Positions 25,282 through 64,000 of a stretch of DNA of 64,000 nt are shown piece after piece. The position numbers and the translations under genes were made by a program. The DNA comes from Crystallibacter permensis (GTDB lineage Bacteria > Actinomycetota > Actinomycetes > Actinomycetales > Micrococcaceae). The first letter of the stretch is position 1; every line of letters begins with the position of its first letter. The notes beneath the pieces are model-generated. The model searched no databases. It was not told where the DNA came from and saw nothing but the letters and a program-made list of their open reading frames with translations. The stretch is taken from the NCBI RefSeq assembly GCF_025960875.1, contig NZ_JAODLR010000002.1:62001-126000 (forward strand), given 5' to 3'.

Positions 25282-27015
25282 GTGACTAACCAGACATCTG
25301 AACCCACCCTGGATAACACGGCCGTGCGGAGCCCCTCCGCGATCGATGCCGTGGCGGACTCCTTCACCGAGTCGCTGCTGGAGATGAATCCCTCGCTCGC
25401 CACGTCGCTGGGCATTCCCGGCCACGAGACCGAGTACGCGGACTATTCCCCCGCCGGCGCCGAGGCGCTGGCCGAGTGCACCCGCGAGACATTGCGGCGG
25501 CTGGAGGACCTGGAGCCCACAGACGATGTGGACCGTGTGACCCTGGATGCCATGCGCGAGCGGCTGGGGCTGGAACTGGAGATCCACGGGACCGGCCTGG
25601 ACCTGGCGGACCTGAACAACATCGCCTCGCCCTCGCAGGACATCCGCGCCATTTTCGACCTGATGCCCACGGCCACTGTGGAGGACTGGAACAACATCGC
25701 CGGCCGGATGGGCAACGTTCCCGATGCCATCAGCGGCTACGCCAGCTCGCTCCGCGCGGCGAAGGAACGCGGGCAGGTGGCGGCCAAGCGTCAGATCCGC
25801 ACCGTTATGGAGCAGGCCAGGGCGTACGCGGCAGAGGACGGCTTCTTCCATTCGCTGGCCGCTTCCGCCCGGATTAACGACGGCGGGCTGCCGGAGGACC
25901 TGCGCAAGCGCTTGGCTGCCGGCGCTGAGACGGCTTCGCACGCCTATGCCTCGCTGGCTGCGTTCCTCGAAAACGAGCTGCTGCCGGTTGCGCCGGAGAA
26001 GGACGCCGTCGGCCGGGAGCACTACTCGCTGATGTCCCGCCGCTTCCTCGGCGCCGCGATCGATCTGGAAGAGACCTACCAGTGGGGCGTGGAGGAACTG
26101 GACCGCATCATCGCCGAACAGGAAGCGGTGGCCGGGCAGATCAAACCGGGGGCTTCCATCGAAGAGGCCATGGCTGCGCTCGATGCGGACGAGTCCCGGC
26201 AGCTGCACGGCACGGACGCCCTGCAGGCCTGGATGCAGAAGCTCTCGGACCGCGCCGTGGCGGAACTGTCCGGCACGCACTTCGACATCTACGAACCGAT
26301 GCGCCGGCTCGAATGCCGCATCGCGCCCACGCAGGAAGGCGGCATCTACTACACCGGGCCATCCGATGACTTCTCCCGCCCGGGCCGCATGTGGTGGTCC
26401 GTGCCGGAGGGCGAGGACACCTTCACCACGTGGAAGGAAACCACCACCGTCTACCACGAGGGCGTGCCCGGCCACCACCTCCAAATTGCGACGGCGACCT
26501 ACCGCCGCGAGCTCCTGAATAACTGGCGCCGGAACATCTGCTGGGTGTCCGGCCACGGCGAAGGCTGGGCGCTGTACGCCGAGCGGCTGATGGAAGACCT
26601 GGGTTACCTGGCCGATCCCGGCGACAAGATGGGCATGCTGGATGCCCAGCGCATGCGCGCCGCCCGCGTGGTGTTCGACATCGGCGTGCACCTGGAACTT
26701 GAGATTCCTGCGCGCTGGGGTTCGGGGACATGGACGCCGGAGAAGGGCTACGAGTTCCTGAAGAAGAACATCGCCATCAGCGAGGGCCAGCTCAACTTCG
26801 AGTTCACCCGCTACCTGGGCTGGCCGGGGCAGGCGCCCTCCTACAAGTTGGGCCAGCGGCTCTGGGAGCAGATCCGCGACGAGCGCCGCCGCCGCGAGGG
26901 CGAGTCCTTCGACATCAAGCGGTTCCACAGCGAGGCCCTGAACCTGGGTTCGGTGGGGCTGGACACTCTGCGCCGCGCGCTGCTGGGCAACGCCGCTGCT
27001 CTGTCAGAGGCCTAG
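25282..27015 (+). CDS. DUF885 family metallopeptidase-like protein
   Basis: 577 aa, cytoplasmic (no signal peptide). Carries HEGVPGHH at residues 392-399 and, about 30 residues on, SGHGEGWALYAERLM, the zinc-binding pair typical of DUF885, a family related to M2/M3-like gluzincins. The N-terminal 250 residues are helical. Likely a peptidase or carboxypeptidase with unknown substrate. Leaderless GTG start. It lies back to back with the serpin gene and is followed by a 366-bp gap holding a 68-bp element and a strong hairpin. Confidence 0.85.
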   Translation: MTNQTSEPTLDNTAVRSPSAIDAVADSFTESLLEMNPSLATSLGIPGHETEYADYSPAGAEALAECTRETLRRLEDLEPTDDVDRVTLDAMRERLGLELEIHGTGLDLADLNNIASPSQDIRAIFDLMPTATVEDWNNIAGRMGNVPDAISGYASSLRAAKERGQVAAKRQIRTVMEQARAYAAEDGFFHSLAASARINDGGLPEDLRKRLAAGAETASHAYASLAAFLENELLPVAPEKDAVGREHYSLMSRRFLGAAIDLEETYQWGVEELDRIIAEQEAVAGQIKPGASIEEAMAALDADESRQLHGTDALQAWMQKLSDRAVAELSGTHFDIYEPMRRLECRIAPTQEGGIYYTGPSDDFSRPGRMWWSVPEGEDTFTTWKETTTVYHEGVPGHHLQIATATYRRELLNNWRRNICWVSGHGEGWALYAERLMEDLGYLADPGDKMGMLDAQRMRAARVVFDIGVHLELEIPARWGSGTWTPEKGYEFLKKNIAISEGQLNFEFTRYLGWPGQAPSYKLGQRLWEQIRDERRRREGESFDIKRFHSEALNLGSVGLDTLRRALLGNAAALSEA

Positions 27016-27033
27016 GGCTGCATCGAGTTACAG

Positions 27034-27101
27034 CGAGATCGTCCCTGCCGGGTGCGGGCGACCTGTGCGAGGGACGATCTCGACGCTAAGGAACGATCTC
27101 G
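27034..27101. repeat. 68-bp three-box element, copy 1
   Basis: Box 1 CGAGATCGTCCCT (27034-27046), box 2 AGGGACGATCTCG (27070-27082) and box 3 AGGAACGATCTCG (27089-27101). Box 1 pairs perfectly with box 2. Gaps are 23 and 6 bases, the same as in copies 2 and 3. It begins 19 bp after the DUF885 stop. Confidence 0.85.
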
Positions 27102-27188
27102 CAGCTGAGCCAAGCCGCTCGCCGCGACGGAGGCCGCTGATGGGAAGCTTCTACAAGTAGGCAGACCGTTCACGCCCCCCGTCCGAGG

Positions 27189-27229
27189 CGTAGGGCCGAA
27201 TCCAGTTGCAGCGGGAAGGTCCTGGCCGG
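27189..27229. repeat. Diverged direct repeat of 27011-27051
   Basis: By hand alignment 31 of 41 bases match 27011-27051, which starts at the end of the DUF885 gene (including its TAG) and runs into box 1 of the 68-bp element. It looks like an old local duplication; the boxes in this copy have decayed. Confidence 0.5.
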
Positions 27230-27278
27230 CGATCTTCCTCACACGGGCGCCGGGAATAACTTCACACAACCCACGCAT

Positions 27279-28868: not shown

Positions 28869-28907
28869 AAAACGCTCGGCCGGGAAATGCCTCCGGCCGA
28901 GCGTTTT
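28869..28907. terminator. Bidirectional rho-independent terminator after dctA-type gene
   Basis: AAAACGCTCGGCCGG (28869-28883) pairs perfectly with CCGGCCGAGCGTTTT (28893-28907), a 15-bp stem with a nine-base loop and T and A tails. Confidence 0.9.
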
Positions 28908-39707: not shown

Positions 39708-39733
39708 CGGGCAGCCGAATTCATAACTGAAAG

Positions 39734-39767
39734 AAAGCCCGCGGTTCCTGTTGGAACCGCGGGCTTT
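39734..39767. terminator. Bidirectional terminator between glsB-type and MHS transporter genes
   Basis: AAAGCCCGCGGTTCC (39734-39748) pairs perfectly with GGAACCGCGGGCTTT (39753-39767), four-base loop, T-rich tail CTT on the plus side and A-rich on the other. It serves both convergent genes. Confidence 0.9.
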
Positions 39768-39790
39768 CTTTGACGGGAATCAGAGGGGAA

Positions 39791-51905: not shown

Positions 51906-51973
51906 CGAGATCGTTCCTCCCGGCGTCCACGTCCTCGTCCGAGGAACGATCTCGTGGCTAAGAGACGTTCTCG
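51906..51973. repeat. 68-bp three-box element, copy 2
   Basis: Box 1 CGAGATCGTTCCT (51906-51918), box 2 AGGAACGATCTCG (51942-51954), box 3 AGAGACGTTCTCG (51961-51973). Box 1 and box 2 pair perfectly. The T:A pair here replaces the C:G pair of copy 1. It lies between the convergent phospho-sugar mutase and sirohydrochlorin chelatase genes, where it could serve as a terminator for both. Confidence 0.85.
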
Positions 51974-58604: not shown

Positions 58605-58967
58605 CTCGAGGTACCTCCCCTGAGCCACTCCGGGGGGCCTCATCACGGCCGCCGTTACGGGTACGGTGCCTCATGCGGTGCACCGAAAATGTGCTGCATA
58701 CCCGCCTCGCTTGTGCGCGCTGCTGCGAGATCGTCCCTCCCTGCCTGGCAGCCCTCCTGTAAGCCACGATCTCGCGGCCGAGGAACGATCTCGTGCATGC
58801 AAGTTCTCATTCAGGAGACCCCGACGGAATTAGCACACGCATCGGACCGGCGGTGCGCGTCACCGGGGGCCTGCATCTGGCCTCCACAGTGGCACAAGCA
58901 CATCTCGACTTCCACATTCGGTCCCTGCATGCGTAGCCTCGACGCCTGTTCTTCCCAGACTGGAGGA
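58605..58967. other. 363-bp intergenic region with 68-bp element copy 3
   Basis: Holds a G/C-rich weak hairpin right after the HemD stop (about 58609-58640), the 68-bp element at 58726-58793, and a TAGCCT box (58934-58939) that may be the promoter of the AbiEi-like gene. Confidence 0.6.
58726..58793. repeat. 68-bp three-box element, copy 3
   Basis: Box 1 CGAGATCGTCCCT (58726-58738), box 2 AGCCACGATCTCG (58762-58774), box 3 AGGAACGATCTCG (58781-58793). Spacing is identical to copies 1 and 2. Here box 1 pairs better with box 3 (one mismatch) than with box 2 (two). Confidence 0.82.
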
Positions 58968-63089: not shown

Positions 63090-63926
63090 GTGAAACGCTG
63101 CACGACTGCCCTGCTTGCCGGTGCCCTCACAGTGGGAGTGATGCTTCCCGCGGCGCCGGCGAACGCCGCCCTGCCTGCTACTTCCGTGATCGCCGTGGGA
63201 AGCTCGAACTCGAAGGCGCTGTTCAGCAATGCCGGCGGGTACGTCGCCTCTTATAAACGCTTCTCGCAGCACTATGTCCTGAAGAACATCAAGACCAACC
63301 GGACGGGTGTGCTGCAGGAATCGCGCAACGGCAAGTGGATCACGCTGCAGAAGCTGACGTGGAAGAAGCAGGCCGGGAAGGCCAGCTCCACTGCTGTCAC
63401 CGTGCGGACCACCCACACCGCGGCCACCGTCAAGAAGAAGTACCGCCTGGTGGTCAACGCCAGCGGCAAGGAAGCCCGGTGGGAGTCGAAGCACGTCACG
63501 CTGCGGCACGAGAACCCCAGATCATACAAGGGCTACAAGAAGACCGTCTACAACCAGGTCAAGAAATACTGCCCCAACGTGATCATCCTGGAAGAGGACC
63601 GGCTGCGCAGCTACACCTACAGCACGTCGCTGCGGATGAATGTAGCCCGCCGGCCCGCGGGGAACCTGCTGAAATATGCCGCCCTGCATGAATGCGCGCA
63701 CATCCGCGAGTTCAGCCTCTACCCGCCGTCGCAGCAGGGCACACTGCGGGCCAAACTGAACAAGATCTACAAAACCACCGGCACCGGCGGAATAGAACAG
63801 GCGGCAGACTGCATGGCTTTCCAGATGGGCGTGAACAGCAAACTCATCTTCGGCACCTACACCAAGAACTGCGCCGGTGCGCGGGGAACAGCGGCGGCCA
63901 AGCTCCTGGCCGGCAAAAGGCTCTGA
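63090..63926 (+). CDS. Secreted HExxH putative zinc metallopeptidase-like protein
   Basis: 278 aa from GTG 63090 with GAAGGA eight bases upstream. Signal peptide about 1-27 (AAPANA). The middle has a beta-rich region (VTVRTTHTAATVKKKYRLVV), then YAALHECAHIREF, an HExxH motif, and about 35 residues later GGIEQAADCMAF, whose Glu could be the third zinc ligand of a gluzincin. Cys residues at the motif and near the C-terminus may pair. The rest matches no family I recognise. Likely an extracellular peptidase or peptidase-derived protein. Confidence 0.8.
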   Translation: MKRCTTALLAGALTVGVMLPAAPANAALPATSVIAVGSSNSKALFSNAGGYVASYKRFSQHYVLKNIKTNRTGVLQESRNGKWITLQKLTWKKQAGKASSTAVTVRTTHTAATVKKKYRLVVNASGKEARWESKHVTLRHENPRSYKGYKKTVYNQVKKYCPNVIILEEDRLRSYTYSTSLRMNVARRPAGNLLKYAALHECAHIREFSLYPPSQQGTLRAKLNKIYKTTGTGGIEQAADCMAFQMGVNSKLIFGTYTKNCAGARGTAAAKLLAGKRL

Positions 63927-63997
63927 CTCCGGGTGCGCCGGGCCGACACCGCGCGGAGCCCCGGGAGCACCCGGCCGCGAACGGCCCGGAGTCAGAG
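63921..63997. terminator. Long stem-loop after the HExxH gene
   Basis: CTCTGACTCCGGG (63921-63933, overlapping the TGA) and CCCGGAGTCAGAG (63985-63997) are perfect 13-base arms around 51 GC-rich bases with inner hairpins. Confidence 0.5.
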
Positions 63998-64000
63998 ACC

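What the first reader, a model, noticed from the sequence alone, without database searches (positions are those of the whole stretch)
27034..27101. 68-bp three-box intergenic element in three copies with fixed spacing and a compensatory stem change
Copies at 27034-27101, 51906-51973 and 58726-58793 each have one forward 13-mer (CGAGATCGTYCCT) and two reverse 13-mers (AGGRACGATCTCG-like). In all three the box starts are 36 and 19 bases apart and the total length is 68. The bases between boxes vary while the spacing does not. Boxes 1 and 2 pair perfectly in copies 1 and 2, and a C:G pair in copy 1 is T:A in copy 2, a compensatory change. Because boxes 2 and 3 compete for box 1, the element can form two alternative hairpins. 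All copies are intergenic, 19 to 121 bp after a stop codon. It resembles REP/MITE-like families but I do not recognise this geometry.
Basis: seen in the sequence. Interest (0 to 1): 0.85.

Follow-up and report, generated by a model that had tools for sequence, protein, structure and literature searches.

The report
Genome-specific palindromic repeat arrays in actinobacteria
The three 68-base repeats belong to a widespread family of palindromic DNA elements, for which I found no published description, that sit mostly just after genes in many actinobacteria and carry a different 'password' sequence in each genome, which points to an unknown protein that recognises or spreads them.

Summary
In detail: three 68-bp copies with 0, 1 and 2 mismatches of 39 to one template; the best match in 200 simulated windows has 11. 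The genome holds 8 copies; 4 of 10 genomes of the genus hold 17. The three-box form looks like a partial version of a symmetric four-box array of 19-bp units (about 68 bp, each unit starting CGAGA). Such arrays match a model in 69 of 396 genomes and 27 of 110 genera sampled in the order, rarely outside it (3 of 354 genomes, unconvincing). The five bases after CGAGA are genome-specific: identity 0.82 within, 0.45 between genomes. Arrays favour convergent gene pairs (31 of 71; control gaps 25 of 212). They lack U-tracts, GTAG/CGTC tags, clear target duplications and a RAYT gene. The 'compensatory stem' reading is not supported: arms of different copies in one genome pair about as well as arms of one copy. 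Best reading: a new REP-like family of non-autonomous palindromic arrays recognised by an unidentified protein of shifting specificity. Orthologous spots sometimes carry different sequence classes.

The parts
27034..27101 (+). Element 1, complete three-box array (68 bp)
   Evidence: 0 of 39 mismatches; 18 bp after the stop of a DUF885 gene
27034..27046 (+). box 1 of element 1
27070..27082 (-). box 2 of element 1
27089..27101 (-). box 3 of element 1
51906..51973 (+). Element 2 (68 bp), between convergent phosphoglucomutase/phosphomannomutase and CbiX genes
51906..51918 (+). box 1 of element 2
51942..51954 (-). box 2 of element 2
51961..51973 (-). box 3 of element 2 (2 mismatches)
58726..58793 (+). 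Element 3 (68 bp), between a HemD / response-regulator-domain gene and an AbiEi_4-containing ORF on the same strand
58726..58738 (+). box 1 of element 3
58762..58774 (-). box 2 of element 3 (2 mismatches)
58781..58793 (-). box 3 of element 3

Best explanation
These are copies of a REP-like family of non-autonomous palindromic repeats that runs through the genome's order (Micrococcales and relatives). The building block is a 19-bp unit: CGAGA + five genome-specific bases + a looser rest. Units stand in direct tandem on each arm and are inverted around a centre of usually 3-4 bp, typically two per arm (67-68 bp). The window's copies look like this array with the inner-left unit lost or degraded. 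I infer that a trans-acting protein, not yet identified, reads the CGAGA(N5) unit and spreads or maintains the copies, and that its specificity changes between lineages, so each genome is dominated by its own sequence class. Copies settle and persist mainly 3' of genes and between convergent genes, where they do least harm or may serve as RNA hairpins or transcription barriers. Shown: geometry, repeat unit, genome-specific motif, placement bias, differences in presence between species. Inferred: the protein, mobility, any role in transcription.
For: 8 copies in the genome and 17 in the genus. Eleven four-box arrays from five genomes align without a gap over 68 columns. 69 of 396 genomes and 27 of 110 genera of the order match the model at E <= 1e-5. 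84 strict arrays from 55 genome groups. The five bases after CGAGA: identity 0.82 within genome (51 pairs) and 0.45 between (852 pairs, among 14 multi-copy genomes); positions 11-13: 0.61 and 0.38. 19-bp tandem units beyond two per arm. Presence differs between species: none of the window's three copies is intact as such in the three sister species, while the five other own sites are shared with at least one of them. At the gnd 3' site 1 of 30 and at the radA 3' site 0 of 30 fetched relatives have an array, the query-derived loci not counted. No dominant neighbour gene (largest cluster 6 of 158 neighbour proteins). Placement 31 convergent, 35 tandem, 5 divergent of 71; control gaps 25, 123, 64 of 212 (other controls).
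Against: No enzyme or binding protein was found; no RAYT; no clear target duplications and no clean empty site. Arrays of different class at the same orthologous spot are not what simple random insertion predicts. Copy numbers are modest (at most 20 per genome by the strict pattern). The low occupancy was not corrected for how many of those genomes carry the family at all.
Confidence: 0.5

Rival explanations
1. Protein-bound arrays maintained in place: a chromosomal DNA-binding protein with lineage-specific recognition binds the 19-bp units and acts as a two-way transcription roadblock or chromosome-organising site, much as cluster A mycobacteriophage repressors do at stoperators. Sites are kept while the motif drifts with the protein.
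For: The unit has a constant half and a genome-specific half shared by the copies, while copy-level pairing is at most weakly selected. Tandem extension at 19 bp. Sister genome G001 has an array of another class at two spots where this genome has its own class, complete at site 3 and with unclear outer boxes at site 1. In a Microbacterium pair (L142/L192) the flanks align and the array stands at the same spot with another class. Phage stoperators are short asymmetric sites whose motif varies between genomes and affects repressor binding (PMC6550527, passages).
Against: Few of the orthologous sites read in relatives hold an array, so sites are not strongly kept. In several genomes inner and outer units carry different motifs, which one protein would have to tolerate. 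No protein identified.
Confidence: 0.25
2. Bidirectional intrinsic terminators or mRNA 3'-end hairpins whose similarity arose by duplication of a handy hairpin.
For: Strong hairpins (mean MFE -49.6 kcal/mol in 84 arrays) near gene 3' ends, favouring convergent pairs.
Against: T-runs of 4 or more in 1 of 168 tails, and in 0 of 34 tails of the own-type copies. L275 has an ordinary-looking hairpin terminator as well as the array. Little copy-level compensation. CGAGA at 19-bp spacing is unexplained.
Confidence: 0.12
3. MITEs of an insertion sequence: the outer boxes are terminal inverted repeats of a transposon family and the copies move by its transposase.
For: Palindromic, multi-copy, sharp ends by eye, presence differing between species. 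Direct repeats of 6, 7 and 8 bp near the ends are slightly above expectation: 6, 4 and 2 arrays of 84 against 3.8, 1.5 and 0.7.
Against: Repeats of 4 and 5 bp are below expectation (29 and 11 against 34.1 and 14.1), so no consistent duplication. No recurrent transposase neighbour was seen. A change of class genome by genome is not typical of one IS family (general knowledge).
Confidence: 0.1

Closest known systems
REP elements of the GTAG and CGTC superfamilies (PMC3733652; abstract, outline, sections 14 and 15, one term search)
   Same: Palindromic, dispersed, partly species-specific sequences, often in inverted pairs, predominantly between convergent and unidirectional genes and near 3' ends; CGTC REPs also lack a dedicated transposase.
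   Different: No GTAG tag (0 of 168 ends), CGTC only at background (18 of 168; background 0.109); no RAYT family match in 24 array-bearing genomes. Regular four-box geometry of 19-bp units, whereas the paper reports variable distances between dimer partners. The main text holds none of six actinobacterial names searched in it.
Stoperators of cluster A mycobacteriophages (PMC6550527, passages read; PMC9283540, start of abstract in a search listing only)
   Same: Short asymmetric sites (13 bp there; 13-bp boxes in 19-bp units here), several per genome, motifs similar but not identical between genomes.
   Different: Those are phage sites with a known repressor and a predominant orientation; these are chromosomal palindromic arrays. 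The single viral-contig match of the strict pattern lies in a 708-codon open frame and pairs in only 5 of 22 free positions.
Iterons of plasmid origins (recalled, no call)
   Same: Tandem units of about 19-22 bp read by a cognate protein.
   Different: Here the units are dispersed at many chromosomal sites and inverted around a centre; a Rep gene was not searched for.
Intrinsic terminators
   Same: Stable hairpin after genes.
   Different: No U-tract; sequence motif shared across copies.

Membership tests
REP, GTAG superfamily | unpaired GTAG tag at one end of the palindrome | tested here: not met
   GTAG in 0 of 168 12-nt ends
REP, GTAG superfamily | RAYT (Y1_Tnp, PF01797) in the genome | tested here: not met
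   no match in the four array-bearing genomes of the genus (1 of 10 genomes has one, G009); 0 of 24 array-bearing genomes elsewhere in the order (24 of the 69); 5 of 14 control genomes rang
REP, CGTC superfamily | CGTC tag at one end | tested here: not met
   18 of 168 ends, background 0.109
REP elements in the broad sense | repeated extragenic palindromes placed mostly 3' of genes | tested here: met
   7 of 84 arrays overlap a called gene
MITE | target-site duplication | tested here: inconclusive
   84 arrays, lengths 4 to 8: 29, 11, 6, 4, 2 against 34.1, 14.1, 3.8, 1.5, 0.7 expected
MITE | cognate transposase with the same ends | tested here: inconclusive
   no dominant neighbour family among 158 neighbour proteins; whole genomes were screened only for PF01797
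intrinsic terminator | U-tract after the hairpin | tested here: not met
   1 of 168 tails; own-type copies 0 of 34
structured RNA with conserved stem | copy-level compensatory changes | tested here: not met
   a slight excess in inner boxes (43 of 1000 permutations) and in own-type boxes (30 and 14 of 2000, where orthologous copies are not independent)
known Rfam family | match above gathering score | tested here: not met
   no match in the window
phage stoperators | cognate repressor gene | not tested
   no repressor query was run
phage stoperators | carried on phage genomes | tested here: not met
   strict pattern: 1 match in viral contigs, not palindromic and inside a 708-codon open frame; own-type pattern: 0

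The most novel reading that the evidence does not exclude
A chromosomal recognition system that re-writes itself: a protein with a fast-changing DNA specificity reads CGAGA(N5) units, and the arrays follow it across the genome, so that the same intergenic spot keeps an array while its sequence class is exchanged for the genome's new class. This would be a REP-like or roadblock system with concerted turnover of sequence and a wholly unknown enzyme.
Probability: 0.2. Interest if true: 0.85.

Novelty: new variant of a known kind. Interest (0 to 1): 0.62.

Why it matters
GTAG REPs are linked to RAYT transposases; here a class of palindromic repeats found through a whole order occurs in 28 tested genomes with no PF01797 match, so some other spreading or maintaining mechanism is likely. 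The genome-specific five-base code is a ready handle: it predicts which array a given strain's protein should bind, so the protein can be fished out directly. The family also offers typing markers and a natural experiment in the co-evolution of a repeat and its reader.

Tried and rejected
RNA stem with compensatory change: the first pair count on alignment A2 looked overwhelming (83.0% of cells paired, 65.3% shuffled; covariation 0.531, shuffled 0.192), but the within-genome permutation showed that sharing of a genome-specific motif explains most of it. I reject copy-level hairpin selection as the main force.

RAYT: no PF01797 match in the array-bearing genomes tested. Terminator: no U-tract. 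Phage or plasmid origin: no useful match. Strong conservation of sites across Microbacterium: not seen. A dominant partner gene: not seen. Clean empty sites with target duplications: none seen. Filling of the missing inner-left slot in the own-type copies: it matches the forward box in 1-6 of 13 and the reverse box in 3-9 of 13 positions, so what stood there is unresolved.

Limits: the model searches scored only part of the first-look candidates (150 per genome, 17, 12), so copy numbers there are floors. Model E-values are rough. The 84 arrays were picked by a pattern that fixes CGAGA in all four boxes, the 19-bp steps and a narrow centre, so these features are not tested by that set; independent support for the geometry is the own-type set (box 2 to box 3 spacing 19 in 17 of 17, box 1 to box 2 spacing 35-37) and the 30 model loci (19 of 68, 7 of 67, 2 of 69, and one each of 78 and 79 bp), though the model also favours its own length. 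Gene calls come from a home-made codon-bias caller; it misread the gene right of element 3, where Pfam supports an AbiEi_4 ORF on the + strand. Searches read only part of the loci and were redone with tblastn, which fetched 30 of the 58 (gnd) and 30 of the 57 (radA) matching genomes and looked only for [CT]GAG-type arrays. The Stenotrophomonas contig (L147) I take for contamination (inference, not tested).

Full report
Observation. The three 68-bp copies are as reported. Against a three-box template with fixed spacing they score 0, 1 and 2 mismatches of 39; the best of 200 Markov-1 simulated windows is 11. In the whole genome a one-mismatch search for the 13-mer and a covariance model give 8 copies, with box starts 36 (35 in one) and 19 apart. 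Four of 10 genomes of the genus carry 17 such copies in all (8, 3, 4, 2). That call's tally says 6 of 10 genomes at E <= 0.1; I left out the rows that are opposite-strand readings of the same places and the marginal singles (including the only rows of G008 and G009).

Orthologous sites. The five own sites outside the window are shared with at least one sister species: nine locus pairs align over about 3 kb at 88.8-97.6% identity (one of them in two pieces). The three in the window are not intact elsewhere: G003 and G004 lack copies at all three places (G004 keeps a short box-like piece at site 1), and G001 keeps a right-half remnant at site 2. At site 3 G001 instead has a complete 68-bp four-box array of another class, with CGAAAGCGGT-type boxes; at site 1 it has the inner hairpin of that class with unclear outer boxes (my reading). 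A search for inverted repeats in the 120 kb of G001 fetched showed no other array of that class. I did not compute a formal probability for this coincidence.

The wider family. A degenerate hairpin pattern found 2 further genomes of 396, with no control match in the rows shown. Eleven four-box arrays from five genomes align ungapped over 68 columns. A model of these finds matches at E <= 1e-5 in 69 of 396 genomes and 27 of 110 genera of the order; this genome itself does not match that model. The strict pattern, run on 394 genomes of the class, matches 10 (control pattern: 1): 7 of the 40 genomes of the order, with up to 20 copies each, and 3 of 354 outside it, which show a tandem repeat or a single match. 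A scan of named genomes lists 80 loci: mostly Microbacterium, with Curtobacterium, Cellulomonas, Cellulosimicrobium, Subtercola, Sanguibacter, Rathayibacter, Rothia, Brevibacterium, Sediminihabitans, Actinomyces, some unnamed actinobacterial MAGs and one Stenotrophomonas contig.

Anatomy. The 84 strict arrays are 67 bp (45) or 68 bp (39) long; the pattern allowed little else. Units extend in tandem at 19 bp: six full forward and two reverse units at L068, and multi-unit arrays in Curtobacterium and others. The five bases after CGAGA are similar within a genome and differ between genomes, e.g. outer units CTGCA 10 of 10 in CACSKB and CTCCA 6 of 6 in JYIX; identity 0.82 within and 0.45 between. 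Some genomes are less uniform (VYRZ, QGDV, MJAK). The next three bases are looser (0.61 and 0.38). Inner and outer units can differ in motif within one genome. Outside the positions fixed by the pattern, the 84 arrays pair in 15.3 of 22 positions on average, never fewer than 10.

Is the hairpin selected? Pair counts across genomes suggest strong covariation, but permuting right arms among copies of one genome leaves pairing nearly unchanged, so the signal is mostly genome-level motif sharing. In the own type, box 1 and box 2 differ at position 6 in 7 of 17 copies, at 3 of 8 sites (rows). A weak excess remains (43 of 1000 for inner boxes; 30 and 14 of 2000 in the own type, where orthologous copies are not independent; box 2 with box 3: 464 of 2000). 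The compensatory reading is therefore not supported as the main explanation, although the DNA or RNA can fold (mean MFE -49.6 kcal/mol).

Context. Of 84 arrays, 31 lie between convergent, 35 between tandem and 5 between divergent genes; 7 overlap a called gene and 6 are at contig edges. Control gaps of at least 68 bp in the same loci: 25, 123, 64. Convergent excess p = 5e-8, divergent deficit p = 5e-5; with gaps of 20 bp or more 4e-8 and 0.0016, with all adjacent pairs 3e-9 and 0.048. In tandem contexts the median distance is 42 bp to the upstream stop and 83 bp to the downstream start, the stop being nearer in 25 of 35. Among 158 neighbour proteins the largest similarity cluster has 6 (ABC-ATPase-like by eye). 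For the 17 own-type copies the caller gave 8 convergent and 9 tandem; for 40 others 18 convergent, 15 tandem, 3 divergent, 3 overlapping, 1 incomplete. Element 3 should be tandem, given the AbiEi_4 ORF.

Turnover. At the 3' end of gnd 3 of 32 and of radA 1 of 31 Microbacterium sites read carry an array; without the query-derived loci this is 1 of 30 and 0 of 30. How many of those genomes carry the family at all was not determined. Many gnd sites show ordinary-looking hairpins, and L275 has both. Five locus pairs (six element pairs) have matching flanks on both sides. One Curtobacterium pair shares a class by eye. L142/L192 clearly differ (0.45 identity at the motif; 0.60-1.0 with copies of their own genomes), L132/L210 differ less (0.70; 0.90 with the one own-genome copy available), L141/L158 are similar (0.70; own-genome copies 0.65-0.90), and L165/L211 had no own-genome copies to compare.

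Mechanism. The anatomy (19-bp unit, constant part plus genome-specific part, tandem extension, little copy-level compensation) is best explained by a protein reading DNA units. The distribution (multi-copy, few orthologous sites occupied, presence differing between species, positions after genes) is best explained by REP-like spread. I combine them: a non-autonomous repeat whose reader also spreads or maintains it. The rival in which arrays are kept in place as roadblocks, like phage stoperators, explains same-spot class change better but site turnover worse.

Known kinds. REPs are the closest: PMC3733652 (abstract, outline, two sections, one term search) describes the same convergent and 3' placement, species-specific families and inverted dimers. 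But the GTAG and CGTC tags are absent and no PF01797 match was found in 4 + 24 array-bearing genomes. RepRanger (PMC12306157, one passage) has a table row of counts for an Arthrobacter genome; I did not read the rest. Eight searches for a description in Arthrobacter, Microbacterium, Micrococcales or actinobacteria listed no paper that by title or abstract start describes it; the library holds open-licence papers only, and the listed papers were not read through.

Noticed in passing
window 63919-63999: Inverted repeat GGCTCTGACTCCGGG...CCCGGAGTCAGAG with a 51-nt loop; arms and loop recur in all three sister species (script coordinates G001a 26249, G003a 27485, G004a 92974).
   Followed up: no
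window 28869-28907 and 39728-39773: Ordinary-looking terminator hairpins with A/T-rich ends, unlike the three-box elements.
   Followed up: no
window 27000-27046 and 27185-27235: By eye, the sequence after the DUF885 gene looks duplicated on either side of element 1; G004 has it once.
   Followed up: partly
G001, orthologous to window 58726 and 27034 (loci L112-L117): A second class of array (CGAAARCGGT boxes) at the same two intergenic spots in sister species G001.
   Followed up: partly
script coordinates G001a 114936, G003a 99676, G004a 11226: Another similar palindrome in the three sister species (AGCAGATAACGCCC or AGCAGGTAACGCCC on one arm).
   Followed up: no
L285, after radA: A tandem repeat of about 25 bp (CACGTCGAGGGCGGGCGCGAATTCG), possibly another repeat family.
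   Followed up: no
L177 4020-4087 and 4234-4301: Two nearly identical arrays 214 bp apart inside a larger cluster of boxes in Curtobacterium.
   Followed up: no
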